The position numbers and the translations under genes are program-made. A stretch of DNA of 36,568 bases from Vulcanimicrobiota bacterium (lineage in GTDB: Bacteria > Vulcanimicrobiota > Vulcanimicrobiia > Eremiobacterales > Eremiobacteraceae), in assembly GCA_014304875.1 (NCBI GenBank), contig JACRUD010000206.1, positions 1 through 36,568 of the forward strand, in the 5' to 3' direction. Of the stretch, positions 2,918 to 35,184 are shown in pieces (positions within the stretch are counted from its first letter, which is position 1; the number at the start of each line of letters is the position of its first letter). Below the pieces are notes generated by a model. That model saw nothing but the letters and a program-made list of their open reading frames with translations, had not been told where the DNA came from and did not search any database.

Positions 2918-2947
2918 ACGGACCTAAAGATCCGTGGCTACATTGCG
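2918..2947 (+). repeat. Palindromic repeat, type A, forward
   Basis: The palindrome acggacctaaagatccgt (2918-2935; one mismatched pair, AA at the tip) is followed by the tail ggctacattgcgg. It lies between the TonB receptor gene and the next gene. The same core and tail recur at 6473, 6552, 28149, 32766 and 35154. Confidence 0.8.
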
Positions 2948-3003
2948 GAGCGGCTGCAAAGGCCGACGCAGGTCGGGTTCCGCCAGCGCCCTAAGCTAAG
3001 CGT

Positions 3004-3894
3004 GTGAAAAACATCGGTCTGATCGGCGCCGGCACGATGGGCGAGCCCATGGGTGTCGCGCTGCTGCGAGCGGGTTTCGCGTTGCGCGTGTGCGCGCACC
3101 GAAGCCGCGAGGCCGTGGAGCGGCTTGTCGCCCAAGGCGCGACCGAAAAGGCCGATCCGGCCGGGGTCGGCGCGGCTTGCGATGCGCTCATCCTCATGGT
3201 GCCCGACGCCCCGCAAGCGGAGGAAGCGCTGTTCGGCTCGCGCGGCGCCGCAGCGTCATTGCGGCCGGGCAGCTACGTCATCATCATGGCCACCATCGCT
3301 CCGGCTGCCGCCCGTTCGCTGCACGGGCGGCTGGCGCAGCGGCAGATCGCTCTGCTTGATGCCCCGGTTTCCGGTGGGCCGGCTCGCGCCGCGACTGCCG
3401 ACCTGGCCATCATGGTGGGGGCAGAGGACGACGCGTACGCAGAGTGCCAAGCAGTATTGTCGGCCCTCGGCCACCCGATTCATGTCGGCGGTCCCGGGCT
3501 CGGGGAGACGGTGAAACTCGCCAATCAGATCATCATTTCAAGCGTCATGCTGGCCGATGTCGAGGCGTTGGTGTTTGCCAAGAAGGCCGGCGCCGACATC
3601 GAAAAATTGCGCGGTGTCATCGCCAACGCCACCGGAGCCAACTACGTCTTAGATCGCTGGCTTCCGCAGTTTTGGTTTAACGGAGGGGAACACGAAGGCG
3701 GATTCGCCCTAGATCTCCTGCGCAAAGACCTCAGAGCTGCGATCGAGGCAGCGCAGGGCATGAACGTGCCGATGGCGGTCTCCAAAGCAGCCCTGAGCCG
3801 GTTCGACGGGGCCTCGGCGCAAGGTTTGGGCTCCAAAGACTACAGCGCCGTAGCACAACCGTACGAGCGCGCTGCCGGGGTGAAAGTGGTCTGA
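3004..3894 (+). CDS. NAD(P)-dependent beta-hydroxyacid dehydrogenase (3-hydroxyisobutyrate dehydrogenase / tartronate semialdehyde reductase family)
   Basis: At 296 residues it has the usual length of the HIBADH family, which oxidises or reduces beta-hydroxyacids in the cytoplasm. The N-terminal Rossmann motif is GLIGAGTMGEPM (residues 5-16). The substrate-binding segment DAPVSGG is at 119-125, and the catalytic helix GLGETVKLANQ gives the active-site Lys171 and Asn174. Translation starts at a GTG, the only start that leaves the Rossmann motif at the N-terminus. It is the first of four tightly packed genes: the next starts 7 bases after its stop. With two polyol-type dehydrogenases and a cupin downstream, a role in sugar-acid or polyol catabolism is likely. 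The exact substrate cannot be read from the sequence. Confidence 0.88.
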   Translation: MKNIGLIGAGTMGEPMGVALLRAGFALRVCAHRSREAVERLVAQGATEKADPAGVGAACDALILMVPDAPQAEEALFGSRGAAASLRPGSYVIIMATIAPAAARSLHGRLAQRQIALLDAPVSGGPARAATADLAIMVGAEDDAYAECQAVLSALGHPIHVGGPGLGETVKLANQIIISSVMLADVEALVFAKKAGADIEKLRGVIANATGANYVLDRWLPQFWFNGGEHEGGFALDLLRKDLRAAIEAAQGMNVPMAVSKAALSRFDGASAQGLGSKDYSAVAQPYERAAGVKVV

Positions 3895-3901
3895 GCCGGT
3901 C

Positions 3902-4927
3902 GTGCGCCAAGCTGTTCTGACGGCTCCCAAAACATTAGAGTGGCGAGAGCTCGCCGACGTGCCCCCAGGGCGCGGTGAGGTGACGGTGCGCATTCGCGCC
4001 GCCTTGACGTGCGGCACGGACCTCAAGACGTTCCGCCGCGGTCATCAAAAGCTGGAGTTCGGGCCGTTCGGTCATGAGGCGGCCGGCGATATCGCGGCAG
4101 TCGGCGCCGGCGTTGAGGGCTTCGCCGTGGGGGACGCCGTCATGTGGGTGCCGACCGCGCCCTGCGGGCGCTGCGCGCAGTGCGCCGCCGCCCGCCCTAA
4201 CCTATGCCAAAAGTTATTCGACGAGATCGCTCAGGGCGCGTATGGGGACTGTCTGACGCTGGCTCCGAAGATCGTCCAAACCAATCTCTACGCCAAGCCG
4301 GATGATCTCACGTACGTAGAAGCCGCTTTTTTGGAGCCGCTCGCGTGCGTCGTACACGGCTGGAACGTCGTTCGGAGGGCGCGCGCCGGCGCCGCGCCGC
4401 CGGCCCGAGTGGCCATCATCGGCGCGGGCAGCATCGGGCTGCTGCAGTTGCTCTACGCGCGGCATCACGGCATCCAAGCGACGGTCATCGCGCGGAACGC
4501 AGAGCGATCCGCGCTCGCGTCAAGGTTGGGAGCCGACGAAACGCTGACGATCGAAACCGCCGCAGACCGGCGTTTCGACATCGTCATAGAATGCGCGGGC
4601 ACGGAGGAGGCATGGCGCCAGGCGGTAGCCTTAGCGGCTCCGGGCGGAAGCGCAGTGTTTTTCGGCGGTCTAGCAGCCGGCACTCAGGTATCGTTGGACG
4701 CGTCGCGCATCCATTACGGGGAGCTCGCGTGTCTGGGCAGCTTTCACTTCACGCCGGCTGACGTGCGCGAAGCGCGCGACTTGCTCGCGACAGCAAAACT
4801 AGACGTGCGGCCTTTGATCTCCGGTGTCGCGCCTTTGTCGCAGTTGGCCGAGGTGTTCGCGCGGCTCGACCAGCGCGACGGCTACAAATATGCGCTGATC
4901 CCGCAGCCACCCGTGCAATGGGTGTGA
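3902..4927 (+). CDS. Zinc-dependent medium-chain alcohol/polyol dehydrogenase
   Basis: This 341-residue protein belongs to the zinc MDR family (threonine or sorbitol dehydrogenase-like), which oxidises secondary alcohols with NAD(P)+. The catalytic zinc ligands are visible as Cys37 and His58-Glu59 (GHEAAG). The structural zinc set is complete at Cys88, Cys91, Cys94 and Cys102. The nucleotide-binding motif VAIIGAGSIGLLQL is in the middle. The start is a GTG 7 bases after the previous stop. Its end overlaps the start of the next dehydrogenase, so the two are co-translated. The next protein is a diverged paralogue, so the pair may act on successive or stereochemically different substrates. Confidence 0.87.
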   Translation: MRQAVLTAPKTLEWRELADVPPGRGEVTVRIRAALTCGTDLKTFRRGHQKLEFGPFGHEAAGDIAAVGAGVEGFAVGDAVMWVPTAPCGRCAQCAAARPNLCQKLFDEIAQGAYGDCLTLAPKIVQTNLYAKPDDLTYVEAAFLEPLACVVHGWNVVRRARAGAAPPARVAIIGAGSIGLLQLLYARHHGIQATVIARNAERSALASRLGADETLTIETAADRRFDIVIECAGTEEAWRQAVALAAPGGSAVFFGGLAAGTQVSLDASRIHYGELACLGSFHFTPADVREARDLLATAKLDVRPLISGVAPLSQLAEVFARLDQRDGYKYALIPQPPVQWV

Positions 4928-5994
4928 AGGGCGCCGTGATAGCAGCCGGCGTCGAGCAGCGGCGCAAAACGCGCGCCGCCTTTTACGAAGCCGGCGGGCG
5001 GATCGTCATCAAAGATTTAGACCTGCCGCCGCTGAAGCAAGGCGAGTTGCTCGTCCGGATCACCGCCTGCGGCATGTGCGCAAGCGACGCGCTTGGCTGG
5101 TACGCCGAGCGCAAAGCGCCGTTTGTGCCGGGTCACGAGCCGGTCGGCGTGGTCGAAGCGTGCGGCGGAGATAAGACCGGATTCGCTCCCGGGGACCGCG
5201 TCTTCGTCCATCACCACGCCGCCTGCATGAATTGCCGGTACTGCCGACGCGGCGACTACGTGCAGTGTCCGAAGTGGCGCGCGCCGCGCCTGTTTCCGGG
5301 CGGTCTGTCGGCGCTAGCGATCGTGGCGTCCGAGAGCGTGAGCACAGACGTGCTGGCGCTGCCCGATCAGATGTCCGATGATGTCGCAACCCTGATCGAG
5401 CCGCTGGCGACGGTCATCAAATCGCTGCGCCGCGCGAGGCTACGGCCCTCCGACAGCGTGTTGATCATCGGACTCGGCGCGATGGGTCTGCTTCACGCCA
5501 TGGTCGCCCGTCATGAAGGAGCGGGGGTGGTGCTCGGTACGGACCGCACTGCGCAGCGTCTGGAGCGCGCGCGGGGATTCGGCCTCGACGCGGTGTTCGA
5601 TGTGGGGCACGAGCGGGCAACCGCCGAGGTCCTCGCAGCGACAAACGGCGACGGAGCCGACGTCGTCATCGTCGGGCCCGGCAGCGTAGAAGCCTTGGAA
5701 GCGGCGGTCGAAACCGTTGCGCGGGGAGGAGCCATCCTGGTCTTCACGCCGACCGCGCCGGAGGTGCTATGGCAGGTCCCCGTGCACGACCTCTACTTCA
5801 AGGACGTCCGTATTATCACCAGCTACTCCGCCGGGCCGGATGACACGCGGGCCGCGCTGGCGTTGCTCGGTGCAGGCCTGCCGGTCGAACAGTTATTCAC
5901 TCACCGGCTGCCCTTGAGCGAGACGGAGCGTGCATACCGCCTGTTGCGGGAGGCGAAGGAAGCGCTGAAAGTCGTCGTGTATCCGAACCGGTGA
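4918..5994 (+). CDS. Zinc-dependent medium-chain alcohol dehydrogenase (second paralogue)
   Basis: The 358-residue protein has the same architecture as its upstream neighbour but is clearly divergent. It shows ITACGMCASD (Cys51 as catalytic zinc ligand), GHEPVG (His73-Glu74) and structural Cys103, Cys106, Cys109 and Cys117. The Rossmann motif is VLIIGLGAMGLLHA. The ATG lies inside the last codons of the upstream gene (10-base overlap). About 20 extra residues precede the conserved start of the fold, so a later start is possible. It is part of the 3004-6452 operon and overlaps the cupin gene in the same way, consistent with coupled translation of a catabolic module. Confidence 0.86.
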   Translation: MGVKGAVIAAGVEQRRKTRAAFYEAGGRIVIKDLDLPPLKQGELLVRITACGMCASDALGWYAERKAPFVPGHEPVGVVEACGGDKTGFAPGDRVFVHHHAACMNCRYCRRGDYVQCPKWRAPRLFPGGLSALAIVASESVSTDVLALPDQMSDDVATLIEPLATVIKSLRRARLRPSDSVLIIGLGAMGLLHAMVARHEGAGVVLGTDRTAQRLERARGFGLDAVFDVGHERATAEVLAATNGDGADVVIVGPGSVEALEAAVETVARGGAILVFTPTAPEVLWQVPVHDLYFKDVRIITSYSAGPDDTRAALALLGAGLPVEQLFTHRLPLSETERAYRLLREAKEALKVVVYPNR

Positions 5995-6452
5995 TGAAGC
6001 ACGAGTTTCGAGAGGATGCCTTCCGCTGGGACGGCATCGAGCCGTCCGGCTATGAGACGGGCAGACAGGATGTGCAAGGCGAGGGCCACCGCGGTGTGAC
6101 CCGTCATATCATCAGCGGGGCGAACGGCGAACCTGCAGCGTTCAGCGTACGCTACTTCGAAGTCGCGCCCGGTGGCTTTACGCGCCTGGAGCGGCACGAA
6201 CATATCCATTCGGTGACGGTCCTGCGCGGCCGGGGCCATGCGATCGTCGGCGAGGACGTGCATACGATCCGAGCGTTCGACCACATCTACGTCTCACCGC
6301 GGACGCTGCACCAATTCGTCAACGACTCCACGGAGCCGTTGGGATTTTTGTGCGTGGTGGACGCGCTGCGCGATCGGCCCGAGCCTGCAACGTCAGCGGA
6401 TATCGATTCGCTCCAACAAAACGAAGTGACGGCCGGACATTTTCGCCTGTAG
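5994..6452 (+). CDS. Single-domain cupin protein
   Basis: The 152-residue protein is a small beta-barrel cupin. Motif 1 is visible as RLERHEHIHSVTVLRGRG (His68, His70), although the usual metal-binding Glu a few residues later is absent. Motif 2, SPRTLHQFVN, supplies His106 and the conserved Asn110. Such proteins bind a metal and act as isomerases, dioxygenases or sugar-binding accessory proteins. The ATG overlaps the previous stop (TGATG); a GTG one codon earlier is also in frame. Its place at the end of a dehydrogenase operon suggests handling of a sugar or sugar-acid intermediate. The function is not assignable. Confidence 0.82.
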   Translation: MKHEFREDAFRWDGIEPSGYETGRQDVQGEGHRGVTRHIISGANGEPAAFSVRYFEVAPGGFTRLERHEHIHSVTVLRGRGHAIVGEDVHTIRAFDHIYVSPRTLHQFVNDSTEPLGFLCVVDALRDRPEPATSADIDSLQQNEVTAGHFRL

Positions 6453-6472
6453 ATCCATGCGTGCGCGATCGT

Positions 6473-6515
6473 ATGTCGCCACGGATCTTTAGGTCCGTCC
6501 TGGACGACGGGGCCG
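6473..6515 (-). repeat. Palindromic repeat, type A, reverse orientation (first of a pair)
   Basis: Read on the minus strand it gives acggacctaaagatccgt followed by ggcgacat, matching the 2918 copy. The 43 bases 6473-6515 recur with a single mismatch at 6552-6594, a 79-base spacing. It lies between the convergent cupin and helicase-nuclease genes. Confidence 0.8.
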
Positions 6516-6542
6516 CCACTAAAGTGGCGGCACTACATTGGG
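6513..6542 (+). repeat. Palindromic repeat, type B, forward
   Basis: The stem ccgccac/gtggcgg encloses the tip taaa and is followed by cactacattggg. It sits between the two reverse type A copies, so the convergent intergenic space holds an A(-) B(+) A(-) array. Confidence 0.75.
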
Positions 6543-6551
6543 GATGGCGTA

Positions 6552-6594
6552 ATGTCGCCACGGACCTTTAGGTCCGTCCTGGACGACGGGGCCG
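6552..6594 (-). repeat. Palindromic repeat, type A, reverse orientation (second of a pair)
   Basis: Near-exact duplicate of 6473-6515, with a perfect palindrome acggacctaaaggtccgt on the minus strand. The duplicated unit includes about 15 bases of non-palindromic flank (cctggacgacggggccg), which shows the pair arose by local duplication, not independent insertion. Confidence 0.8.
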
Positions 6595-6610
6595 TGAAGT
6601 TACATCGCGA

Positions 6611-9600
6611 CTAGCTTGCGTAGTCCATGCAGGGCGCCGCGCGATATGGGCATGTCCGGCACCACGCTCCCGGTCGCGGTGTGACGTCACCCGACTCGAT
6701 TCCGGAGGTGGCGGCGCGTACGCGCGCCTCGACTTGTGCAGCGTCTAACGGCTCCACCGCTTCGAACGCGAAGGGCCCGTCGCCCACGCGGCCCACCAGG
6801 TGGTTCTGCGCCGCGATTTTGTATGCGCGGCGCGCGCCGTCTGCGTAAAGCCCGAATTGCAAGCGGTAATCCTCGACCGGCCACTCGCCTGTCTTGAAAT
6901 CCACAACGGTCAACCGCCCATCGGGGTCGGTCGCCATCAAATCGATGTACCCGCTGACCGCAATCCCGCCGTAGTCGAGCACGAACGGCGCCTCGACGTG
7001 CAGCGGCCTCCATCGGCACAACGCGGCCGCCGCGCTGCACACGGCGGCGTTTGCTCGTTCGGCGTCCGGGCGCGCGACATGCTCGCTGAGATCGGCTGCA
7101 GCCCGTTCGACGATGGCACGCGCGTCGGAGAGAGGTTCGCAGGCCCTGTCGATAGTCCGACGCAACCATAATTCTAGCGAGCGGTGCACGAGGCGGCCAT
7201 ACCCGCCCAAGGACAGCGGAAGAATATCCGGCATTATCTGGTCGTCTTCCACCTGCCGGCTCGTACCCGGCGCGAGCGGCGGGAGTCCCAAAGCCAGTTC
7301 GTAATTGACCTGCCGCGCACAGCGTTCGAAACGCGTTAGCAGCGAGAACGACAGCGTCGGCACGCGAAACTTTGCCGGCGCCCTCGGCAGTCGCGCCGCC
7401 ACCCCCTCGGGTCGTGCTTCGAACTCGGCTATTTCGGATCCGGCGTCGGTGTGGCTTGGCTCAGAGTCCACAGCTGCCAGCGCCAGGGGAAGTTGGCGCG
7501 CCGCTTCGCCGTTAAGTGCTCCCGTCAGCGGGGGCAGCGGTTCGTCCAAGGGCCAGCCGCGATTCTCCATCCAAGCGATGGCATCCGCGAGGAAGTCGTC
7601 CGGCTTGCCCCCCGGAAAGGATTTGCTCGGCTGTCCGCGCTTGCCGCTGATGAATAGCTCGTCGCGCGCGCGGGTCACCGCCACGTAATAGAGCCGGCGC
7701 TCCTCGCGCTCGCGGCTGTCGTCCTTTGCGCGGTCCTTTCTGGGTAAAGTATGCCCCCGGCTGTCGGCGTCTTCTTGGAGCGCATGGGTGTGAAAAGGTC
7801 TGACGCCGTCACCGCCCTCTGAGACGATCAGGGCGCCGGTTCGGTCGTCCACACGCACCGGCAGCTTGTCATGCTGGCCCCGCGGCCAGACATCGACGAT
7901 GAAGACGATCGGCCACTCGAGGCCTTTTGCCGCGTGGATCGTCATGACGCTCAGTGCGTCGGCGGACGGCGGGTCGGCTTCGCGATCGTCCTCCATCGAC
8001 TGCTCCAAGGCGTAGATGTAGCCGACGAAATCCGCCGGCCGCGCTCCTGGGTTGCGTAGCCCGAAAGTGCGCGCCAAGCTGCCCAGTTTGCGCAGGTTTG
8101 CAAGCGCTTGGGCGGCGTCCCGCGCGCCGCTTGAGGCCGCGCTGCGCGCAAGGCCGCTGCGTTCGAGGATCGCTTCGTATGCCAGACCGACCGGCGCGCC
8201 CGCGTAGTTTTCGAGCGCTTCGAGCGCCTTGCGCAGTCGCTCTATCCGCTCGCCTCCCTGAGGGTTCAAGCCGTCAGCTAAAGGATCGACGAGCAACCGG
8301 CGCGCGAATATGTCGGCGTCTTCGGCGCCGCGCGGCTGGCCGGCGGCGGGAACCGGATTCAACTCGCTTAGGGTGGCATCGGAGATGCCGATGCCCGGAG
8401 ATGCGGCCGCTCGCGCGAGCGGAATCGAGTCGAACGGGTCTGCGAGCAACTTCATCCAGCTCAGCGCATCGATGACCTCGGGCGCGTCGTAAAAGCCTAC
8501 TCCTCCGAAGAGTCTGTACGGGATGCCGAACTCGATCAGTGCGTCCGTATACGGCTGAATCTTCGTCTTGTTCCGGCTGAGGATGGCGATGTGCCGTGGC
8601 CCAAGCGCTACTCGGCGGCCCGACTCCTCGACGCTGCGGCCGCTTTGCAGCATCCAAGCGATGCGCCGTGCCACGGCCGAGCCCTCGCGTTTACGCGACT
8701 CCTCGGCATTGGGTGGAGGGCTGCCCGGCCTGGCGAAGCCGGCGCTGACGTGGACCACTTGCGTCTGAGCGCTGCCGCGCGCGGCGCGCAGCGGGCTTGC
8801 GTCGCCGCTGTGCGGCGAGATGAGGTGATGGCCGAGGTCGAGTATCTCTTGGCGAGAGCGCCGATTCTCGCTCAGCGCGTAGTCGGCGCAACGGTCTGAC
8901 TTGCGGAAGACTTCGAAGTTGCGCGGGTCTGCGCCGCGGAACCCGTAGATGCTCTGGCGCGGGTCGCCGACCGCCATGACGCCGGCAAAGCCGCCGAAGA
9001 TCGCTTCGAGCAGGGAGTCCTGACGCGGATCCGTGTCTTGAAACTCGTCGACGATGCAATGCTTGAAGCGGCGGCGCAGGTCGTGCGCGATGGTCGGCCT
9101 TTCCCGCAACGCGTTCTCCGCGAGCAGAAGAAGATCGGCGTACGTCAGCGCACCGCGCAGGGCGAGCCTTTCGTCGAACCGGCGGAACAGGGCGCAGGCC
9201 GCTTCAACGCGCGCTCGCTCGGCCTTTATCTGGGCATCGAACTCAGCATCGCTGACTTTGGCGCCGGGCCTCAATCCGCGCTTGTTCTCTTGCACTAACT
9301 CACGATAAGGTACTCGGGCGAAGTCATCCGCCGCCCCGAGCGCCCGGCGGCGAAACGCCTCGATGCCGATTCCGGTATCCTTTAGTTTTTGGACGATCAA
9401 AAACAACGACTCGCGAACTTCGTCGCGCAACGGAAAGCGCAGGCAGTAGTTGGATGCATCTTCGGGCAGGTCGCCGCGTTCGAGTTCACCGAACGCTAAT
9501 GCGAACTCTAGCCGCGCGTCGACTTCGTTGATCAAGTTGAGGTCAGGCGAGATCGTCAGATCGTAAGCGTACTGCCTGAGAACCCCGAGCGCGAATGCGT

Positions 9601-18138: not shown

Positions 18139-18175
18139 GACGGACGGATCCAAATGTGGGTGGCTATATTGGGGG
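18139..18175 (+). repeat. Degenerate palindromic repeat, type A, forward
   Basis: acggacggatcc at 18140-18151 and the later tggctatattgggg keep the ends of the type A element, but the middle is decayed (caaatgtggg). It lies between the convergent NamZ and creatininase genes, the same kind of place as the intact copies. Confidence 0.5.
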
Positions 18176-22150: not shown

Positions 22151-22218
22151 AGCAAAAAAACGCGATGGAGCGGCCGCTGTTGTTTCGTCGAAACGGAAAG
22201 CATCAAGGCATGAGAAAG

Positions 22219-22248
22219 GCCGCGACTAAAGCCGCGGCGCTACATTTG
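22219..22248 (+). repeat. Palindromic repeat, type B, forward
   Basis: gccgcgac/gccgcggc arms around taaa, followed by gctacatttggcgg. A second partial tail (gcgctacatttcggggg, 22257-22273) follows immediately. It lies downstream of the minus-strand phosphatase/DUF6496 gene. Confidence 0.75.
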
Positions 22249-22279
22249 GCGGGTGCAGGCGCTACATTTCGGGGGATGG

Positions 22280-22528
22280 TTATTTCTTTTTGGGAGGCAC
22301 CTTTGCTCCGCTCTTGCGCGCTTCGGATAGACCGATGGCGACGGCTTGTTTCGGGTTGGTGACTTTCTTGCCGGATCGGCCGGACTTGAGTTTGCCCTGC
22401 TTCATCTCGTCCATCGCGGCGCCGACTTTATCGCTCGCCTTCTTGCCATATTTGCGGCCACCGCTCTTTTTCGATGTCGTGCGTGTGCCGGCGGCTTTCT
22501 TCGACCCGCTGCTCGTCTTTTTCGGCAT
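22280..22528 (-). CDS. DUF6496 small basic protein, nested in frame at the 3' end of the phosphatase gene
   Basis: An internal ATG at 22528 begins an 82-residue, strongly basic protein. It opens with a Lys/Ser/Gly-rich tail (MPKKTSSGSKKAAG, SKKSGGRKYGKKAS) and ends in the DUF6496 core KVGAAMDEMKQGKLKSG, KVTNPKQAVAIGLSEARK. DUF6496 proteins are normally free-standing at about this length. The ATG has its own strong ribosome binding site (gggaggag, 22535-22542 on the plus strand). That site is itself translated as part of HREERP in the longer frame. The gene therefore looks like an independent unit whose upstream neighbour lost its stop codon, giving both a fusion and a free protein. Function unknown; the composition suggests nucleic-acid association. 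Confidence 0.65.
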   Translation of the reverse strand: MPKKTSSGSKKAAGTRTTSKKSGGRKYGKKASDKVGAAMDEMKQGKLKSGRSGKKVTNPKQAVAIGLSEARKSGAKVPPKKK

Positions 22529-24454
22529 CGGTCTCTCCTCCCGGTGGCGCTTTACTTCGCCGGATTTCGGGCCGACCAACGCGATGAGAATCGCCACGTC
22601 GTCGCGCGCACCATCGTGCAGAACGAGGTCGTGAATGGCCTTTGCCGGGTTGGCGCTTTTGACGACATCATCGCTTGCAAGTGCCGCTCGCAGCCTTCGT
22701 TCTCCTTCGAATAGGTCATGCGTCGATTCTATGAGGCCGTCGGTATAGCACATGACCAAAGAGCCGTGCGGTAGGTGGACCGTCTGGGGAGGAACTTCGT
22801 CGTCGCCGCGCAGTCCGAGCGGCAGGCCGCAACCGTACCCTTCGGAGATCTTCCCGTCCGCATGCCGGAACAAAGGACCGGGGTGGCCGGCAGCGGCCCA
22901 CACGAAAGTCAATTCTTTGGGGTCTAAGATGCCGACCAGCGACGTCACCATGCCGTACGGATAGTCGAGCTTGACCATGCGGTCGGCGGTGTCGAGCATA
23001 ACCGCGGGATCCGGGTGGATCATCGCGACAGAACGTAACGTCTGGCGTACTTTGCACATGACGACCGCCGCTTCGACGCCGGTGCCGCACACGTCGCCGA
23101 TCGACAGCGCGATGCGGCCATCAGGGATGCGAAAGGCATCGTACCAATCTCCGCCCAGTTGGACGTCGGTCTGGGCCGGGATGTACGTGGAGTGGAACGT
23201 CACCCCGTCGACTGTCGGCAACGATTCCGGCAGGGAGGCCTCTTGAAAGACTTGCGCCACGCGCTTCGAGTTCTCGTGCTCGCGAGCGTGGTCGATGGCG
23301 TTAGCGGCGCGGTGGGCCAGCTCTTCGAAGAGCGGCGAGTCCACCTTGCTGTACGGCCGTCTCCCTTGCGTTGACACGGCGATCAAAGAGCCGAGAACGC
23401 GGTCCGCCGATTCAAGCGACAGCATCATCATGGAGCCTCGCCCGAGGCGCTTGACGAGCGGCAGGTAACGAGTCAGGACGATGGACGACAAGAAATCGTT
23501 GCCGGCGTGCGAGACGATGCGCGGTGACAAGGAGCCGAGCGTGTACGAGGCGTCCCACAAAGCGCCCGGCTTGAGGTACGCACGTCCGCGCAGCCGCTCG
23601 ATATCTGTGGCTCTTTGGGGATCGACGTGCGCGGCGGCGCGCCCGGTGAGCAGGCCGCCGCCGCCGAGAAGGTTTATCACTGCCCAATCAGCCATGTCCG
23701 GGACGATCAACCGCAGCAGCGTGTCCAGCGTATCCTGCATGTTGAGCGAATCGGTCAACATCTTGCTGGCGTTGGCCAGAAACTGCAGGGACTCGTTCGC
23801 TTGTTTCAGCTTGGTCACATCGCGCGAGTACACGAGCAGGCTCTGAGCTTGTCCGGCTGCATCCAAAAGGGGTGTGACCGTTACGTCCCACAACGTGGGC
23901 TCGTGACTGTCTTCGGGAAAATGCGCTTGGAATGCCCCCGTGCGGCCCGCGCGAGCGGCGGTCACGGCCGAGCGCGCTTCCTCACGACTGATTTTGGGCC
24001 ACATCTCTATCCAAGACGAGCCGACCGTCGGCACGATGTCGTCGATGCCGGCCGGCTGAGGACCGTTGCGGCTAACCCAGACGACGTGCCCCTCGACGTC
24101 AAGCAGCTTGATGCAATCGGGGCTGCAGTGGACGAGGCGCTGCGAGAACTGCAGGGTTTGAAACAGCGCCGCTTCTTGGCTGTTGCGAGCCCCGACCTCA
24201 GAAGCCGGCACGGCCGAGAGGGCTGTGGATAGACGTGAGTCACCGTGGGAAGCGGGGGCCTTACCGTTGCCCGTCGCAGCGGAAGGGATGGCCTCGTTGG
24301 CGTGGCCATTCGCTCGAGCGGGCGCCACAACTGGTCGGGAGACTGCATGTCTTGCGGGGCCGCGATGGCGATCCACTAATTGACTCCTGCTGCAAGCATA
24401 ATAGTCGGACGCTCCGTACGCATCAGCGATACCAACTCGTATCTTCTCACCCAT
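22280..24454 (-). CDS. PAS-GAF-SpoIIE (PP2C-type) serine phosphatase with in-frame C-terminal DUF6496 extension
   Basis: The 724-residue frame has a variable N-terminus, a PAS domain (about 95-225), a GAF domain (about 240-400) and a SpoIIE/RsbU-type PP2C phosphatase (about 415-640). Phosphatase metal ligands are visible in GGDWYDAF, IGDVCGTGVEAA, YTDGLIE and ARDDVAILI. Such proteins dephosphorylate anti-sigma antagonists in partner-switching stress pathways. After the normal end of the domain (ILIALV) there is no stop: translation runs through GPKSGEVKRHREERP into a basic DUF6496 protein. I prefer the ATG at 24454; a GTG at 24526 is in frame. No anti-sigma or antagonist gene lies nearby. Confidence 0.85.
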   Translation of the reverse strand: MGEKIRVGIADAYGASDYYACSRSQLVDRHRGPARHAVSRPVVAPARANGHANEAIPSAATGNGKAPASHGDSRLSTALSAVPASEVGARNSQEAALFQTLQFSQRLVHCSPDCIKLLDVEGHVVWVSRNGPQPAGIDDIVPTVGSSWIEMWPKISREEARSAVTAARAGRTGAFQAHFPEDSHEPTLWDVTVTPLLDAAGQAQSLLVYSRDVTKLKQANESLQFLANASKMLTDSLNMQDTLDTLLRLIVPDMADWAVINLLGGGGLLTGRAAAHVDPQRATDIERLRGRAYLKPGALWDASYTLGSLSPRIVSHAGNDFLSSIVLTRYLPLVKRLGRGSMMMLSLESADRVLGSLIAVSTQGRRPYSKVDSPLFEELAHRAANAIDHAREHENSKRVAQVFQEASLPESLPTVDGVTFHSTYIPAQTDVQLGGDWYDAFRIPDGRIALSIGDVCGTGVEAAVVMCKVRQTLRSVAMIHPDPAVMLDTADRMVKLDYPYGMVTSLVGILDPKELTFVWAAAGHPGPLFRHADGKISEGYGCGLPLGLRGDDEVPPQTVHLPHGSLVMCYTDGLIESTHDLFEGERRLRAALASDDVVKSANPAKAIHDLVLHDGARDDVAILIALVGPKSGEVKRHREERPMPKKTSSGSKKAAGTRTTSKKSGGRKYGKKASDKVGAAMDEMKQGKLKSGRSGKKVTNPKQAVAIGLSEARKSGAKVPPKKK
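22535..22542 (-). promoter_or_regulatory. Internal ribosome binding site before the DUF6496 start
   Basis: gggaggag on the minus strand ends 6 bases before the ATG at 22528, within the open frame of the phosphatase. Confidence 0.6.
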
Positions 24455-24561
24455 GGCCGAGCGCGTCGACCATCGCGACGGGGTCGTTCTGTCTTTTGTA
24501 TCGACCGTTTTGCGGCCGTCCCGCACGCCGCGGCCGGGCGGTTGTTTTCAAGGTCATCAGC

Positions 24562-27317: not shown

Positions 27318-27335
27318 AGAAACGGGACTGAATCT

Positions 27336-28102: not shown

Positions 28103-28148
28103 AGCGTAGCGGGGACGATTTGCCCTTACGCCGCGTCGGGCGCGGGAG

Positions 28149-28180: not shown

Positions 28181-28203
28181 GTTTAAAGCGTTGGGGCGGC
28201 CAC

Positions 28204-28217: not shown

Positions 28218-28272
28218 TATGCGAACCTTAGACCTTCAGTTGTTCCAACCATAGTAGAAGGGATTTTCTTGG

Positions 28273-29510: not shown

Positions 29511-29530
29511 CCGTCGGAAAGGGAAGCACG

Positions 29531-30400
29531 ATGATCGACATGCTGCTCGAAATGGTGGATTCAAGCGACGAGCTGAGCCGGCTCAGCGAACGCGTGCAGC
29601 CGGCGGTGCTGGACGCATTTAAAAACGCGGGCGCCGTGGGCGGCGACGTGAAGAACGCCTTGCATGGGACCTGGCTGGGGCACCCGCTTCATCCGGTCCT
29701 CGTCAGCCTTCCCATCGGCGCCTGGACGGCGGCGGTTCTATTCGATGTAGGTTCGGGGATTTTCGGGCGCAAGGAATTACGCGCCGGCGCAGATGCGTGT
29801 GTCGCGTTCGGCCTGGTCGGAGCGCTTGGGTCGGCAGCTACCGGGCTTGCCGACTGGACGGGGGTCACGGGGAAGGGACGGCAATTAGGTTCGGCCCATG
29901 CGATCCTGAACCTGAGCGCAACGGCTTTATTCGCCACGTCGCTCGGCTTGCGGCGGGCTCGCCATCGCAAGACGGGCATCGCAACCGCGCTGATGGGCTA
30001 CGGCCTGGCGCTGGTCTCTTCGTACATCGGCGGGGATTTGGTCTACGGCAAAAAGGTCGGCGTCGATCATGCAGAGCGCGATGGACTGCCTGACGATTAC
30101 GTCGCCGTGCTTGCCGAGGGGGAGCTCGAGGAGGGGCGACCGCGTCGGGTTGATGCCAAAGGCGCTCCGGTCGTGCTGGTGCGCCAGGGCGACACCATTC
30201 GGGCTCTTTACGAGAAGTGTTCGCACATGGGCGGCCCGCTCGCCGAGGGAAGCGTTGAAGGCGACAACATACGCTGCCCTTGGCACGGCTCATGCTTCTC
30301 CCTAGACGACGGCCACGTGGTAGACGGTCCGGCGACGTTCCCCCAGCCGTGCTTCGACGCCCGCATCAACAAGGGCCAGATCGAAGTCCGCCGAGTGTAG
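29531..30400 (+). CDS. DUF2231 membrane domain fused to a Rieske [2Fe-2S] ferredoxin domain
   Basis: The 289-residue protein begins with about 45 soluble residues, then a DUF2231 membrane domain (about 48-175, with GHPLHPVLVSLPIGAW and four hydrophobic segments). A C-terminal Rieske domain follows (about 185-285). The cluster ligands are all visible: Cys230-x-His232 (CSHMGGPL) and Cys249-xx-His252 (CPWHGSCF). The fusion puts a ferredoxin-like redox centre on the membrane; the electron partners are unknown. The ATG at 29531 follows ggaaagggaag and starts 20 bases after the hydrolase stop, so it is in the same operon as the ferritin-like protein. The open frame upstream of 29531 is not supported. 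Confidence 0.87.
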   Translation: MIDMLLEMVDSSDELSRLSERVQPAVLDAFKNAGAVGGDVKNALHGTWLGHPLHPVLVSLPIGAWTAAVLFDVGSGIFGRKELRAGADACVAFGLVGALGSAATGLADWTGVTGKGRQLGSAHAILNLSATALFATSLGLRRARHRKTGIATALMGYGLALVSSYIGGDLVYGKKVGVDHAERDGLPDDYVAVLAEGELEEGRPRRVDAKGAPVVLVRQGDTIRALYEKCSHMGGPLAEGSVEGDNIRCPWHGSCFSLDDGHVVDGPATFPQPCFDARINKGQIEVRRV

Positions 30401-30470
30401 CTTTCGCGTTCCTTTCGCGGCGCCGCTACGGAGGGCTGTCGGGCGTGAAAACCGGAATGTGGTGAAGCGG

Positions 30471-30487
30471 CACGGAGTGGGTATAAC
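30471..30487 (+). promoter_or_regulatory. Promoter-like element before the metallothionein gene
   Basis: cacggagtgggtataac, nearly identical to the element before the ferritin-like gene (cacgccttgggtataac). An ECF-like ggaat lies further upstream at 30454-30458. The element is 48 bases before the start codon. Confidence 0.4.
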
Positions 30488-30521
30488 CAGTCGGTACCGA
30501 CGAAACGCCGCAACGATTTGC

Positions 30522-30529
30522 GGAGGAGG
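30522..30529 (+). promoter_or_regulatory. Ribosome binding site of the metallothionein gene
   Basis: ggaggagg lies 5 bases before the ATG at 30535, close to the ideal Shine-Dalgarno. Confidence 0.7.
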
Positions 30530-30534
30530 CGATC

Positions 30535-30675
30535 ATGGCGAAGTGTGGATGCGGATCATGCAGTTGCACGGTCGAGGCGGAAGGCGGCAAGGCCGGCTAT
30601 TGCAGCGACGTCTGCAAGGCGGATTGCGGGAGCAGCCGCAGCTGCGATTGCGGCCATCCGGATTGTAAGCCGTAG
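30535..30675 (+). CDS. Bacterial metallothionein, 46 residues
   Basis: A 46-residue frame, too short for many gene finders, holds ten Cys and one His. It opens MAKCGCGSCSCTVEAEGG (CxCxxCxC), continues KAGYCSDVCKADCG and ends SCDCGHPDCKP. This is the layout of bacterial SmtA/BmtA metallothioneins (CxCxxCxC, then YCSxxC, then CxCGHxxC). These bind zinc, cadmium or copper in a thiolate cluster in the cytoplasm. Its ribosome binding site is excellent. It follows the ferritin-like/hydrolase/Rieske operon by 134 bases and has its own promoter-like element. An inverted pair of type B repeats follows directly after the stop and could act as its terminator. Confidence 0.85.
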   Translation: MAKCGCGSCSCTVEAEGGKAGYCSDVCKADCGSSRSCDCGHPDCKP

Positions 30676-30681
30676 CGCTTT

Positions 30682-30707
30682 TGTAGCGCCGCGGCTTCGG
30701 TCGCGGC
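30682..30707 (-). repeat. Palindromic repeat, type B, reverse orientation
   Basis: On the minus strand it reads gccgcgaccgaagccgcggc followed by gctaca, matching the copy at 22219. It starts 6 bases after the metallothionein stop and faces the forward copy at 30727. Confidence 0.75.
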
Positions 30708-30726
30708 CCGCGGTGCCCGCGAATGC

Positions 30727-30757
30727 GGCCGCCACTAAAGCGGCGGCGCTACATTAG
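30727..30757 (+). repeat. Palindromic repeat, type B, forward
   Basis: ccgcc/ggcgg-type arms around actaaag, followed by cgctacattag. With the reverse copy at 30682-30707 it makes a larger foldback: tgtagcgccgc (30682-30692) can pair with gcggcgctaca (30743-30753). Confidence 0.8.
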
Positions 30758-30830
30758 CAGCGGCTAGTGCCAGCGGCTCCCAATCGGTAGGTTGCAGTAA
30801 AAAGCGCAATGGCGCCGTATACAGCGCCGC

Positions 30831-31286
30831 ATGGATATCCGCATGGCGACGGCTGGGGCTGTGTTAGCCGCCGTCGTCGGCGCTTCCACGCCTTCGCTCC
30901 CATCTTTTAGCGGGCGCGGGCCTCTGGCGCACGATCGAGAGTGCGCGATGACGGCCATCGCCAAGATCGTGAATAGGGATCGTTATCGAGACACCCTCGA
31001 AGGAACGCATTTCTCAAGCGGCCGCAGCTCCTTGCGTCTGGAGTTCGCAAACGGGTGGGTGATCGATGGCTACTCGCCGTTAGCCGTCGCCTTTGAGGAC
31101 GATCCCCACGCCGTGCTGGCTTTTCGGCCGAACGATAAGGTTCAAGCGTGTCCGATCCAGCGCACGTACTGCGATGACGATCGGGGCGATTGGCAAGTGG
31201 CGCTTCGGGTTTACGATTTTACGGCTAAGGAGTCAGTCACCGGACTGCAATCTCACTGCCGGCAACTACTGCCGGACACCGATTAG
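30831..31286 (+). CDS. Secreted protein of unknown function
   Basis: The 151-residue frame starts at ATG 30831 (a second ATG at 30843 is equally possible; neither has a clear ribosome binding site). A short signal-like segment (ATAGAVLAAVVGAST) is followed by a mature part with four Cys (RECAMT, VQACPIQRTYCDDD, SHCRQ) and strands such as SSLRLEFANGWVIDGYSP and WQVALRVYDFTAKE, suggesting a small beta-rich periplasmic domain. No family recognised. Confidence 0.55.
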   Translation: MDIRMATAGAVLAAVVGASTPSLPSFSGRGPLAHDRECAMTAIAKIVNRDRYRDTLEGTHFSSGRSSLRLEFANGWVIDGYSPLAVAFEDDPHAVLAFRPNDKVQACPIQRTYCDDDRGDWQVALRVYDFTAKESVTGLQSHCRQLLPDTD

Positions 31287-31372
31287 GCCGACGCCGTTTC
31301 GCAAACGCGAACCCAAACGGTGCCGCTGAACGGCCGCTTCCGGCATGCTGACGCGCTCGCGTGCGCCGGGGG

Positions 31373-32296
31373 ATGACTCGCAAACCGACACAAGCGCGGA
31401 TCTGGGCCGCGCTGGTCACGGTCTACGTGCTGTGGGGTTCGACCTATCTCGGGATCCGCTGGGCCGAAGCGACGATTCCGCCGCTGCTCATGTCGGGCGT
31501 CCGCTTTTTGATCGCCGGGGCCATCCTTTTTCTTTGGCGTCTTCCCAGTGCGCGACGCAATGGCGAAACGCCGTCTCGCGGCCATTGGATGGCAGCATTT
31601 TTGGTCGGCGTGCCTCTGATACTGGGAGGCAACGGCGGCGTGGCGCTCGCGGAGAGAACGGTGCCGTCGGGCGTCACGGCGGTCATGGTCGCGCTCACAC
31701 CGCTTTGGATGGCGCTGATCGACCGCTTTGTTTTCCACCGCCGCTTGAATCCATGGACGTGGACCGGCATCGTGGTCGGCTTCGGCGGCGTCGCATTCTT
31801 GATCGGACTGCCGGGGTCGGGGCGGATCGACATCGTGGGCGCGAGCATCGTCGTCGTCGCGTCGTTGAGTTGGGCCGCCGGGTCGATCTACTCTCGTGAG
31901 GCCAAGCTGCCCAAAGACTCGTCGCTCGGAATCGGCATGGAGATGCTGGCCGGCGGCGCCTGTCTGTGCATCGCGTCGGCCATCTTCGGGGATGCGGGGC
32001 GTCTCCATGTCGCACGCATCTCGCCGCTGTCGTATTGGTCGTTCGCTTACCTGGTCGTGTTCGGTGCCATCGTGGGATTCAGCGCGTACCTGTGGTTGTT
32101 GCGGGTGACCGAGACCAGCCGCGTCGCGACCTACGCCTACGTCAATCCGGTCGTCGCGGTGGCCTTAGGGGCGGCGCTGGGGCACGAACCGATCTCCGCG
32201 CGCACGGTTGCGGCTGGCGCCGTCATCCTGACCGGCGTCGCGCTCATCGTCGCCAACTCCAAACCGCCGGAAGGCGCAGCCGAAGCTGGCCCCTAA
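31373..32296 (+). CDS. EamA-family (DMT superfamily) transporter
   Basis: The 307-residue protein has ten predicted membrane segments and the two EamA repeats. The first begins IWAALVTVYVLWGSTYLGIR and includes GVRFLIAGAILFLW and VPSGVTAVMVALTPLWMALID. The second includes VVVASLSWAAGSIYSREA and TSRVATYAYVNPVVAVALGA. YedA/RhtA-like members export metabolites such as amino acids or their derivatives across the inner membrane; the substrate is not predictable. I chose ATG 31373, with the GTG at 31361 as an alternative. The msrB gene follows 10 bases after the stop. Confidence 0.86.
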   Translation: MTRKPTQARIWAALVTVYVLWGSTYLGIRWAEATIPPLLMSGVRFLIAGAILFLWRLPSARRNGETPSRGHWMAAFLVGVPLILGGNGGVALAERTVPSGVTAVMVALTPLWMALIDRFVFHRRLNPWTWTGIVVGFGGVAFLIGLPGSGRIDIVGASIVVVASLSWAAGSIYSREAKLPKDSSLGIGMEMLAGGACLCIASAIFGDAGRLHVARISPLSYWSFAYLVVFGAIVGFSAYLWLLRVTETSRVATYAYVNPVVAVALGAALGHEPISARTVAAGAVILTGVALIVANSKPPEGAAEAGP

Positions 32297-32306
32297 TTTA
32301 TCGCGT

Positions 32307-32726
32307 ATGACTACGAATATCGAAAAAACAGAAGAGCAATGGCGCAGCGAATTGACGCCGGAGCAGTATGCAGTTCTTCGAGAGGCTGCGACCGATCGGC
32401 CGTTTACGGGTGCGCTGGTCCATAATAAAGCGGCGGGAACATATCATTGCGCCGGCTGCGGCGAAGAACTGTTCAAGTCCGACACCAAGTATGAATCGCA
32501 CTCGGGTTGGCCCAGCTTTACCGAGCCTGTGGCGAGCGGGCGGGTGGAGCTGCGGCGTGACGACAGCCTTAGCATGCGGCGTACGGAAGTCCGCTGCAAG
32601 GGCTGCGGTTCGCATCTGGGCCATGTCTTCGACGACGGGCCGGGTCCCAGCGGAGCGCGCTATTGCATAAACTCGACTGCGCTCGGGTTTAGAGCTGCCG
32701 AAGACGACGACCGGGGCGCCGACTAA
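32307..32726 (+). CDS. msrB: Peptide-methionine (R)-S-oxide reductase MsrB
   Basis: The 139-residue protein reduces methionine-R-sulfoxide in oxidised proteins. It shows the four zinc Cys (Cys48, Cys51, Cys97, Cys100), the segment SGWPSF and the catalytic Cys120 in RYCINS. The resolving Cys common in other MsrBs (SGCGWPSF) is replaced (ESHSGWPSF), so recycling may use thioredoxin through another route. Its stop codon TAA lies inside the loop of a type B repeat. It is in the same operon as the EamA transporter. Confidence 0.93.
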   Translation: MTTNIEKTEEQWRSELTPEQYAVLREAATDRPFTGALVHNKAAGTYHCAGCGEELFKSDTKYESHSGWPSFTEPVASGRVELRRDDSLSMRRTEVRCKGCGSHLGHVFDDGPGPSGARYCINSTALGFRAAEDDDRGAD

Positions 32727-32743
32727 AGCCGCAGCGCTACATT
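32714..32743 (+). repeat. Palindromic repeat, type B, forward, overlapping the msrB stop
   Basis: ggggcgccgactaaagccgc and gctacattag keep the type B pattern; the TAA of the loop is the msrB stop (32724-32726), so the last residues of MsrB are encoded by the repeat. Confidence 0.65.
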
Positions 32744-32765
32744 AGCGGTGGAGTTGGCAAAGCGT

Positions 32766-32791
32766 ATGTAGCCACGGACCTTTAGGTCCGT
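32766..32791 (-). repeat. Palindromic repeat, type A, reverse orientation
   Basis: On the minus strand it reads acggacctaaaggtccgt then ggctacat, the best consensus copy. It pairs with the forward type B copy at 32714 in the space between convergent msrB and the M3 peptidase gene. Confidence 0.8.
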
Positions 32792-32814
32792 TCCGCCGTC
32801 AGTTTGCTGTCGGT

Positions 32815-34503
32815 TTACAAGGCCAGGGCTTCGCGTGCGTGCGCGACCACGTGTTCCATGGCACCCGGTTCGAACGGCGACTGCAAGCCCGCCGACCGGG
32901 TCAACTCGCGAAACGGAGCCTCGCCTCCGCGCCTGCATAGAGCGACGTAGTCGGCCAGCGCAGCGCCGTAGTCGCCCTGCGACTTGGCCCAAAACTGCAG
33001 AGCGCAGCACGACGCCAGAGTGTAGTCGACGTAGTACAGCGGGCTCACGTAGATATGTTGTTTGGCTTGCCACAGACCGCCGCCGGCAGGGTAGGCTATG
33101 TCTCCGTAGCGGCGCCAGGGCAGATAGCGGGCTTCCATCTGTTGCCACATCGCATTGCGCTGCGCCGGCGTTGCGTCCGGCTGAGCGTACACCAGGTGCT
33201 GAAAATGGTCGACCGCCGCTCCGTACGGCAGAAAAAGCAGTGCCTCCGCCAGATGTTCCTTCCGGTAGGCCGCGGCTTGCGGCCCGAAAAGCCGCTCCAT
33301 GTACGGCCACGTGAAGTACTCCATGCTCATGGAATGGATCTCGGCCGATTCCGACGTCGGCCAAAAATAATCGGTGACCGCGCGGTCGCGGCTCTGCCAA
33401 TTCTGAAACGCGTGCCCTATCTCGTGGATCAAGACATCGACGTCATCCTTCGTGCCGTTGAAATTCGCGAAGATGTACGGAACTGCGTAGCTCGGAAAAC
33501 TGGTGCAAAAACCGCCCCCCGCCTTGCTCGGCCGGTTGCGCATGTCCATGAGATGACGATCGAGCATCATGCGGTAGAATTGGCCCAAAGACGCGTCCAT
33601 GTCGGCGAACATCTCCTGCGCCCGGGCCAAAATCCAGTCATGATCACCCAGCGGTATCGCGTTGCCGCGCGGGTCGGATACCGACTCGTCCCAATACATC
33701 GCTTCCTTCAGGCCCAGCTTGTCGGCTTTACGGGTTATGATCTCTTGGGCGATAGGAACAACCGTGCGCACGATCTCATCGCGGTAGCGCTCCACGTCGG
33801 CGTCATCGTAGTCCACGCGGCGCATGCGCCGGTATCCTAAACCGATGTAATCGCCGTACCCGAGTTTCCGCGCCATCGAGTGGCGAAGCCGCACCAGATC
33901 TCCGTAGAGGTCGTCCAGTTCGCTCTTGTGCTCGCCGAAAAAGCTCCAGCGAACCTGTTCGGCGGCATGACGCACGGCGCGATCGGGGTCTTGAGTGAAG
34001 CGCTTGATGGTCTGCAGGTTGAGGCGTTGGCCGTCAAAAGGCAGATCGGCAGAAGCGAGCAGCTCGGTGTAGCGGGCGGTCAGGGTCGCTTCGCGCTGCA
34101 AGTCGCCCGTGATCGCGGGGTCGAAGGCCGCGATATCGCATCTCCACAAGTCGAAGGCATGACGTCCGACGATTTGCTCGATGTCTTCTCGATGCTGCGG
34201 GGCTAGCAGAGTGCGCTTTACGCCGACCTCCAGCTCCGTGAGCCGAGGCAGCAGGGCATCGCAATACTGACGCGCCGCGCTGTAGGATGCATTTTGCGTG
34301 TCCTGGCTGAAACGCAACATCGTGAGCGAACTCCACGATTCTATTTGGCGACGAAGCTGTTCCCACTGAGCAAACGCCCTCAGTCGTTGCTCCTTCGTCT
34401 GGGCGGCATCCAGCAGGCGCCTGATCTCAGCGTACTGCTGCGCAGCACCTTCGTAAGTCGGGGTCTGCGGTGATATGTCGGAAAAAAGCGTTCCGTTATT
34501 CAT
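32815..34503 (-). CDS. M3-family oligoendopeptidase (PepF-like)
   Basis: The 562-residue cytoplasmic zinc peptidase shows VDVLIHEIGHAFQNW (HExxH at about residue 359) and the downstream third-ligand segment SESAEIHSMSMEYF (about 385-395), both typical of M3B oligoendopeptidases. The helical N-terminal half (TYEGAAQQYAEIRRLLDAAQ) and the substrate segment DYTLASCCALQFWAKS fit the family. It degrades short peptides. No signal peptide is present. The ATG at 34503 is the natural start. It is divergent from the MOSC gene with 100 bases between starts. Confidence 0.9.
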   Translation of the reverse strand: MNNGTLFSDISPQTPTYEGAAQQYAEIRRLLDAAQTKEQRLRAFAQWEQLRRQIESWSSLTMLRFSQDTQNASYSAARQYCDALLPRLTELEVGVKRTLLAPQHREDIEQIVGRHAFDLWRCDIAAFDPAITGDLQREATLTARYTELLASADLPFDGQRLNLQTIKRFTQDPDRAVRHAAEQVRWSFFGEHKSELDDLYGDLVRLRHSMARKLGYGDYIGLGYRRMRRVDYDDADVERYRDEIVRTVVPIAQEIITRKADKLGLKEAMYWDESVSDPRGNAIPLGDHDWILARAQEMFADMDASLGQFYRMMLDRHLMDMRNRPSKAGGGFCTSFPSYAVPYIFANFNGTKDDVDVLIHEIGHAFQNWQSRDRAVTDYFWPTSESAEIHSMSMEYFTWPYMERLFGPQAAAYRKEHLAEALLFLPYGAAVDHFQHLVYAQPDATPAQRNAMWQQMEARYLPWRRYGDIAYPAGGGLWQAKQHIYVSPLYYVDYTLASCCALQFWAKSQGDYGAALADYVALCRRGGEAPFRELTRSAGLQSPFEPGAMEHVVAHAREALAL

Positions 34504-34603
34504 CGGGCATGCACTTAGGCGCGCGCGTTCACCCGGCCTTGAACGCAGGACACGCGATTGCGCGATGCGGTATGAGGGACCGAAACGTTAGGCGGCCCGG
34601 AGG

Positions 34604-35167
34604 ATGAAGGTGCTGTCCGTGAACGTGGGGCGGCCAAGGGTCGTGCAGTCCGAGGGAGAGCCGGTCGACACGGGCATCTTCAAACACCCCGTCAAGGGGC
34701 GGCCTTTCGTGCGACGCCTCAACATCGTCGGTGACGAACAGGCCGATTTGCGAAACCATGGCGGCACAGACAAAGCCGTGTACGCATACCCGCACGAGTA
34801 CTACGAGTACTGGCGAGGCCAATATCCGGGCTTAAATTTGCCGTTCGGGGCGTTCGGTGAAAATTTGACGGTGGAGGGGCTGTTGGACATCGACGTGCGT
34901 ATCGGCGATCGTCTTGGGATCGGGTCTGCGCAGCTCAGAGTGACGCAGCCGCGTATCCCGTGCTATAAGCTGGGCATTCGTTTGGGCCGCCCGGATATCG
35001 TCCGGCGGTTCGTGCGCAGCGAGTATTGCGGATTCTACCTCGCGGTGGAATGTGAGGGAGAGATCGGCGCCGGCGATGCGGTATCCATCGTGGCAAGCGA
35101 TGCCGGGGCGGCGACGGTCACGCAAGCATTTCGGACCCACCTAGGTCGGCGTGACGGACCGACCTAG
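34604..35167 (+). CDS. MOSC domain protein (YiiM-like)
   Basis: The 187-residue protein matches stand-alone MOSC proteins: MKVLSVNVGRPR at the start, GDEQADLRNHGGTDKAVYAYP, FGENLTVEGLLD and PRIPCYKLG with the conserved Cys120 that binds sulfur or the molybdenum cofactor. YiiM-like members reduce N-hydroxylated compounds using a molybdenum cofactor. The ggagg directly abuts the ATG, an unusual zero spacing, but the family start MKVLSVN supports it over the GTG two codons on. The stop TAG lies inside a type A repeat. Confidence 0.87.
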   Translation: MKVLSVNVGRPRVVQSEGEPVDTGIFKHPVKGRPFVRRLNIVGDEQADLRNHGGTDKAVYAYPHEYYEYWRGQYPGLNLPFGAFGENLTVEGLLDIDVRIGDRLGIGSAQLRVTQPRIPCYKLGIRLGRPDIVRRFVRSEYCGFYLAVECEGEIGAGDAVSIVASDAGAATVTQAFRTHLGRRDGPT

Positions 35168-35184
35168 GTCCGTGGCTACATTGG
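35154..35184 (+). repeat. Palindromic repeat, type A, forward, overlapping the MOSC stop
   Basis: acggacc, a short gacctaggtc centre, then cgt and ggctacattgg. The central TAG (35165-35167) ends the MOSC gene. A half copy (cggacccacctaggtcggc, 35132-35150) lies just upstream inside the coding region. Confidence 0.75.

What the first reader, a model, noticed from the sequence alone, without database searches (positions are those of the whole stretch)
2918..35184. A two-type family of REP/BIME-like palindromic repeats at gene 3' ends
Type A (acggacctaaaggtccgt then ggctacattgg) and type B (ccgc-rich arms around actaaag, then gcgctacattag) share loop bases and the tail ctacatt. I find copies at 2918, 6473(-), 6513, 6552(-), 18139 (decayed), 22219, 28149, 30682(-), 30727, 32714, 32766(-) and 35154. 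All are intergenic or touch a stop codon, and four of the eight convergent gene junctions contain one. Established REP elements have this size, palindromy, orientation pairing and 3' location. No REP-associated transposase (RAYT) is in the window, so the mobiliser lies elsewhere or is unknown.
Basis: partly seen in the sequence, partly recalled or inferred. Interest (0 to 1): 0.75.

Follow-up and report, generated by a model that had tools for sequence, protein, structure and literature searches.

The report
GTAG REP repeats with broken transposase
These are ordinary REP repeats (short DNA hairpins scattered between bacterial genes and probably copied by a RAYT transposase), found here in two paired types in an uncultured bacterium most likely of the phylum Eremiobacterota, with the matching but now broken transposase gene elsewhere in the same genome.

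Summary
All 12 listed copies are real. On the correct strand (opposite to the one read for most copies) they are textbook GTAG-tagged REPs: 5'-ATGTAGCC-ACGGACC-TTTA-GGTCCGT (type A) and 5'-ATGTAGC-GCCGCGGC-TTTA-GTCGCGGC (type B). Genome-wide there are about 80-120 A and 90-110 B copies. In a 1.1 Mb sample 136 of 145 are intergenic although 88% of the DNA is coding; convergent gene ends are four-fold enriched.

The "missing" mobiliser exists: one RAYT gene, flanked by inverted type-B REPs (a REPtron), but with an in-frame TAG. Relatives in the same Eremiobacterota family carry intact RAYTs, most flanked by their own GTAG REPs; one of these is almost type A.

Close inverted pairs are nearly always A with B (24 of 26), like E. 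coli Y/Z BIMEs. Type A has no cognate RAYT here and its GTAG head is more often broken, which fits the published "orthoswitch" or RAYT-loss model.

Verdict: a new member of a well-known kind. Unexpected lead: REP orientation is nearly uniform over long contigs, independent of gene direction.

The parts
2916..2944 (-). Type A REP (GTAG head intact)
   Evidence: R1 49.3 bits; PWM 47.9
6472..6500 (+). Type A REP (head GTCG); first member of an A+ B- A+ array
   Evidence: R1 49.0 bits
6510..6539 (-). Type B REP; inverted partner of the two flanking A copies
   Evidence: R2 47.7 bits
6551..6579 (+). Type A REP (head GTCG); the 43-bp segment from 6552 is a near copy (98%) of 6473-6515, so the array probably grew by unit duplication
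   Evidence: R1 49.2 bits; direct repeat D2
18142..18170 (-). Decayed type A REP between convergent genes
   Evidence: PWM 25.0 bits
22217..22246 (-). Type B REP between convergent genes
   Evidence: R2 52.3 bits
28147..28175 (-). Type A REP between genes in tandem
   Evidence: R1 45.9 bits
30680..30709 (+). Type B REP, GTAG outside; homotypic inverted pair with the next copy (a rare B-B pair); inside a short doubtful ORF
   Evidence: R2 44.1 bits; the pair folds as one long hairpin, -32.4 kcal/mol, z -4.8
30726..30755 (-). Type B REP
   Evidence: R2 48.4 bits
32714..32743 (-). Type B REP; its loop supplies the TAA stop of the SelR-domain gene 32307-32726
   Evidence: R2 46.1 bits
32765..32793 (+). 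Type A REP, inverted partner of the B copy (GTAG inside)
   Evidence: R1 49.2 bits
35156..35182 (-). Type A REP with altered loop; contains the TAG stop of the MOSC-domain gene 34604-35167
   Evidence: R1 29.5 bits; gene end

Best explanation
The repeats are GTAG-tagged REPs, two classes of one architecture (ATGTAG + 2 nt + 7-8 bp stem + TTTA loop). They occur singly, in tandem and in BIME-type inverted pairs in the chromosome of a bacterium most likely of the phylum Eremiobacterota. Most likely mechanism: a RAYT (TnpA-REP, an HUH/Y1 single-strand transposase) recognises the folded GTAG hairpin on one strand, cuts beside it and disperses copies. Copies persist where they do no harm, just after stop codons and between convergent genes. 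Type B is the class tied to the resident RAYT (it flanks the gene). Type A is an older or orphan class, left from an earlier RAYT or from a time before the RAYT's flanking REPs changed; its copies remain and decay. The resident RAYT now has a nonsense codon, so the family may no longer be spreading in this genome. Shown here: sequence, architecture, copy number, intergenic location, RAYT identity, REPtron layout, A-B pairing, greater loss of the GTAG head in A, and co-occurrence of the repeats with RAYTs. Inferred: single-strand cutting and dispersal by RAYT, the age order of A and B, and the present inactivity.
For: Covariance models give 120 A matches (E<=1; 82 at E<=0.01) and 110 B matches (E<=0.1; 94 at E<=0.01) in the own genome. 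In 1.10 Mb, 75 A and 70 B stand far above shuffled sequence. 136/145 are intergenic with 88% coding; 35/156 convergent junctions hold one against 54/834 others, p=1e-8. One RAYT: NCBIfam NF047646 'REP-associated tyrosine transposase', 97.5 bits (cut-off 80), one in-frame TAG, no second copy. It has two type-B REPs upstream (+) and two downstream (-). TAG is an ordinary stop in this genome (155 of 465 genes). RAYTs of relatives match NF047646 above the cut-off, and their profile's best PDB match is 4er8 (described as TnpArep). 10 of 14 family genomes have an NF047646 match (9 of them uninterrupted), against 1 sub-threshold match in about 100 others of the class; type A is strong only in G000, G005 and G007. 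Most of the relatives' RAYTs are bracketed by GTAG hairpins of their own kind, and one bears the near-A palindrome GGCGGACC-TTTA-GGTCCGCC. Inverted close pairs: 24 A-B, 2 B-B, 0 A-A; tandem pairs: 9 A-B, 18 same-type, p=1e-5. GTAG intact in 60/70 B but 42/75 A, p=1e-4. Type B shows compensatory stem changes (27 cells; shuffles max 21), A does not. Orthoswitch and RAYT pseudogenisation are described in PMC3686654, heterodimer preference in PMC3733652.
Against: No movement has been observed: no empty or filled site was compared between strains. The genome is a 92.9% complete draft in 211 contigs, so a second, intact RAYT could be missing. The TAG could be an assembly or population artefact. Overall divergence from consensus is the same for A and B (3.2 and 3.3 mismatches in 25 nt), so the greater age of A rests on loss of the GTAG head and lack of compensatory change only. 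The RAYT tree is poorly resolved.
Confidence: 0.93

Rival explanations
1. Type A and type B are both substrates of the one RAYT, kept as a two-part BIME unit (like Y and Z of E. coli), rather than A being an orphan class.
For: A and B share head, spacing and TTTA loop; inverted pairs are almost only A-B; E. coli has one RAYT for Y, Z1 and Z2 (PMC8266576). In G005 type A is also abundant without an A-flanked RAYT.
Against: The RAYT is flanked by B only; GTAG is lost more often in A; B loci are strongly oriented along contigs, A loci are not, suggesting different histories; a near-A class has its own RAYT in G007.
Confidence: 0.35
2. Intrinsic transcription terminators shared by many genes.
For: Hairpins close behind stop codons and at convergent ends.
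Against: A T-run of 4 follows the hairpin in 4 of 128 cases, the intergenic background rate of 2.9%. Near-identical sequence genome-wide, tandem arrays, the conserved GTAG head and the RAYT link are not terminator features. They may still affect mRNA ends secondarily.
Confidence: 0.03
3. A structured RNA family or regulatory RNA element acting after transcription.
For: Stable hairpins downstream of genes; G-U pairs in type B.
Against: No Rfam match in the window. Copies lie on either strand relative to the adjacent genes (A 20 same, 15 opposite; B 7 same, 17 opposite).
Confidence: 0.03

Closest known systems
GTAG super-family REPs (Di Nocera et al. 2013, PMC3733652)
   Same: GTAG end, 6-9 bp stem, short loop, high copy number, location at 3' and convergent gene ends, REP ends supplying TAG stops, HH/TT dimers, heterodimer preference in some families
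   Different: Stem sequences not checked against the 24 consensus sequences (a figure, not held as text); found here in a probable Eremiobacterota genome, a phylum the held papers do not connect with REPs
E. coli Y/Z BIMEs with TnpA-REP (PMC8266576, PMC2817692)
   Same: Two REP types alternate in opposite orientation; one RAYT per genome
   Different: Here the stems are unbulged and short (like the perfect palindromes of group 3), and the RAYT is flanked by one type only
Pseudomonas/Stenotrophomonas REPs and RAYTs, 'orthoswitch' (PMC3686654)
   Same: Abundant REP class without a cognate RAYT next to a class that has one; nonsense-bearing RAYT genes
   Different: Different phylum; type A is conserved between two genera while the RAYT-linked stem differs (GCCGCGGC and GCCGGGGC)

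Membership tests
GTAG REP | GTAG (or GTGG) tetranucleotide at the 5' foot of a short hairpin | tested here: met
   Consensus ATGTAG before the stem in both types; intact in 60/70 B and 42/75 A
GTAG REP | 20-40 nt palindrome with short loop | tested here: met
   7-8 bp stem, 4-nt TTTA loop; both consensus hairpins are the minimum-energy DNA fold
GTAG REP | High copy number, extragenic | tested here: met
   At least 82 A and 94 B at E<=0.01; 136/145 intergenic
BIME/REPIN | Close pairs in inverted orientation | tested here: met
   26 inverted pairs, 7-27 nt apart, 24 of them A-B
RAYT (TnpA-REP) | HUH motif and catalytic Tyr of the Y1 superfamily; match to RAYT model | tested here: met
   MPDHIHI motif; NF047646 97.5 bits with one TAG read through; relatives uninterrupted and above cut-off
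RAYT (TnpA-REP) | Gene flanked by inverted cognate REPs (REPtron), single copy | tested here: met
   Type B at L001 1338+, 1377+, 1929-, 1968-; one gene in genome
RAYT (TnpA-REP) | Intact open reading frame in this genome | tested here: not met
   In-frame TAG at L001 1609-1611; uninterrupted in relatives
RAYT (TnpA-REP) | Strand-specific cutting of cognate single-stranded REP | not testable with these tools
   Needs purified protein
RAYT group 2 or 3 | Sequence group assignment | not tested
   No reference tree of groups was built; short perfect palindromes suggest group 3, which is inference

The most novel reading that the evidence does not exclude
REP insertion in this lineage is tied to the direction of DNA replication. 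RAYT-linked REPs point the same way over tens to hundreds of kilobases whatever the gene direction, with the GTAG strand tending to be the C-rich strand, so REP orientation could record fork polarity and rearrangements. The older class (A) has lost the pattern in the own genome.
Probability: 0.3. Interest if true: 0.5.

Novelty: new member of a known kind. Interest (0 to 1): 0.25.

Why it matters
It adds a REP-RAYT system in a probable Eremiobacterota lineage, a phylum for which the held literature shows no REP study, and shows the same rules as in Proteobacteria: heterotypic BIMEs, an orphan REP class, a decaying RAYT. For annotation, it shows that short conserved hairpins at gene ends in these genomes are mobile repeats and not terminators or RNA genes. 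The orientation lead, if confirmed in closed genomes, would bear on the open question of how REPs are inserted.

Tried and rejected
Terminators: no excess of T-runs after the hairpin. RNA families: no Rfam match. UAG recoding as an explanation of the interrupted RAYT: TAG is a common stop here. A second RAYT in the genome: none with Pfam Y1_Tnp or NF047646. A first covariation count used pairs shifted by one base and was redone correctly. The association of REP strand with GC skew by contig is weak (A 24/34, p=0.02; B 19/27, p=0.05), so no claim is built on it. The RAYT tree did not resolve which relative is closest.

Full report
WHAT WAS CHECKED. The window is contig C101 of a 2.49 Mb, 211-contig draft genome, 92.9% complete. 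Read on the strand where the hairpin starts with GTAG, they are type A, ATGTAGCC-ACGGACC-TTTA-GGTCCGT, and type B, ATGTAGC-GCCGCGGC-TTTA-GTCGCGGC. Both types have the same register: GTAG at positions 4-7 of the model, loop at 17-20. The type-A core with up to 3 mismatches gives no match in 100 shuffles.

GENOME-WIDE. Covariance models built from the window copies (plus four REPtron copies for type B) find 82 A and 94 B copies at E<=0.01 (120 and 110 at looser cut-offs). An independent ungapped weight-matrix scan of 1.10 Mb finds 75 A and 70 B. With a simple codon-usage gene caller, 88% of that DNA is coding but 136 of 145 copies are intergenic by midpoint; the other nine mostly touch a gene end or lie in doubtful ORFs. 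Convergent junctions hold a REP in 35 of 156 cases, tandem in 40 of 685, divergent in 14 of 149; convergent against the rest p=1e-8. In the window it is five of eight convergent junctions. Sixteen copies contain the stop of a called gene, including the SelR-domain gene of the window; the MOSC-domain gene ends in the REP at 35156-35182. REP ends supplying stop codons are known from PMC3733652.

PAIRING. Neighbours within 120 nt: inverted pairs are A-B 24, B-B 2, A-A 0; same-direction pairs are B-B 13, A-B 9, A-A 5, Fisher p=1e-5. Heterodimer preference is known in several GTAG families, with a suggested reason: long perfect hairpins are cleared, e.g. by SbcCD (PMC3733652). E. coli BIMEs combine y with z1 or z2 (PMC8266576). 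Shown: the pairing. Inferred: the reason.

THE TRANSPOSASE. The only Y1 transposase found in the genome lies on C191. It matches the NCBIfam model REP-associated tyrosine transposase at 97.5 bits (cut-off 80) and has one in-frame TAG. TAG is a normal stop in this genome. Two type-B REPs precede it in + orientation and two follow it in - orientation: a REPtron. The stop of the upstream gene falls in the loop of the first REP. No type A REP lies there.

RELATIVES. In the same family, 10 of 14 genomes have an NF047646 match (this genome's being interrupted); among about 100 other genomes of the class only one sub-threshold match appears. Most of the relatives' RAYTs are bracketed by GTAG hairpins, of different stems; one in G007 has GGCGGACC-TTTA-GGTCCGCC, one compensated pair and one base away from type A. 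G005, another genus, has type A (78 by pattern), its own RAYT-linked type GTAGTGCCGGGGCTTTAGCCCCGG (234 copies at up to 2 mismatches) and at least two further classes. Named records identify four of these relatives: G001 is a 'Candidatus Eremiobacterota' MAG (JAFANK01), G010 a 'Candidatus Eremiobacteria' MAG (JANWLL01), G008 an unidentified bacterium (CADDZI01), and G007 a MAG labelled Proteobacteria (JAJPHJ01), a label at odds with the first two. The window's genome is therefore most likely Eremiobacterota (Vulcanimicrobiota in NCBI); this is inference from family membership.

TYPE A VERSUS TYPE B. GTAG is intact in 42 of 75 A and 60 of 70 B copies (p=1e-4), while overall divergence is equal. 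B stems show compensatory changes beyond 500 shuffles (27 against at most 21), A stems do not within this genome; in G005, however, type-A variants change both sides of a pair together. This fits A being an older class whose RAYT was lost or whose RAYT-flanking REP changed ('orthoswitch', PMC3686654). The rival, one RAYT using both as in E. coli, is not excluded.

ORIENTATION LEAD. In the own genome, independent B loci on one contig point the same way in 94% of pairs (11 contigs, p=5e-5), A loci in 48%. In G005, the RAYT-linked type is 12/12 + on C8, 11/11 - on C9, 18/19 - on C10, but 18+/13- on C11. On sampled C15 all classes together are 66 - and 2 +, while open frames on those stretches (L182-L187) are 33-57% on the + strand (values by locus id; its contig labels are wrong). 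IS200/IS605 transposition is coupled to the lagging-strand template (PMC6006769), so a replication link is plausible, but the GC-skew relation is weak, C11 does not fit, and no closed genome was available. The papers searched report no such bias for REPs; E. coli REPs are described as spread on both strands (PMC12306157).

VERDICT. Observation confirmed; interpretation supported and sharpened; a new member of a known kind.

Noticed in passing
G000 contigs C132, C175, C147, C50, C94; G005 contigs C8, C9, C10, C15: RAYT-linked REPs point the same way along whole contigs, independent of gene direction; type A in the own genome does not.
   Followed up: partly
L182-L201 (G005): At least four REP classes coexist in one 2.6 Mb genome, two of them seen only here (GTAGCG..CCGAGCGAAGCTCGG and GTGGTATGCCGGACTTTAGTCCGGC), but only one RAYT was found.
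   Followed up: partly
L072 (G012) 1087-1400 and 1919-1990; L076 (G007) 1071-1270 and 1791-1931: Tandem runs of up to nine regularly spaced REPs (about 33-36 bp period) beside uninterrupted RAYT genes.
   Followed up: no
window 22280-24526 (-): PAS-SpoIIE phosphatase with a C-terminal DUF6496 domain, an unusual-looking fusion.
   Followed up: no
window 22257-22269: A stray AGGCGCTACATTT, the complement of a type-B head without a hairpin, just beyond the REP at 22217-22246; possible remnant of a deleted copy.
   Followed up: no
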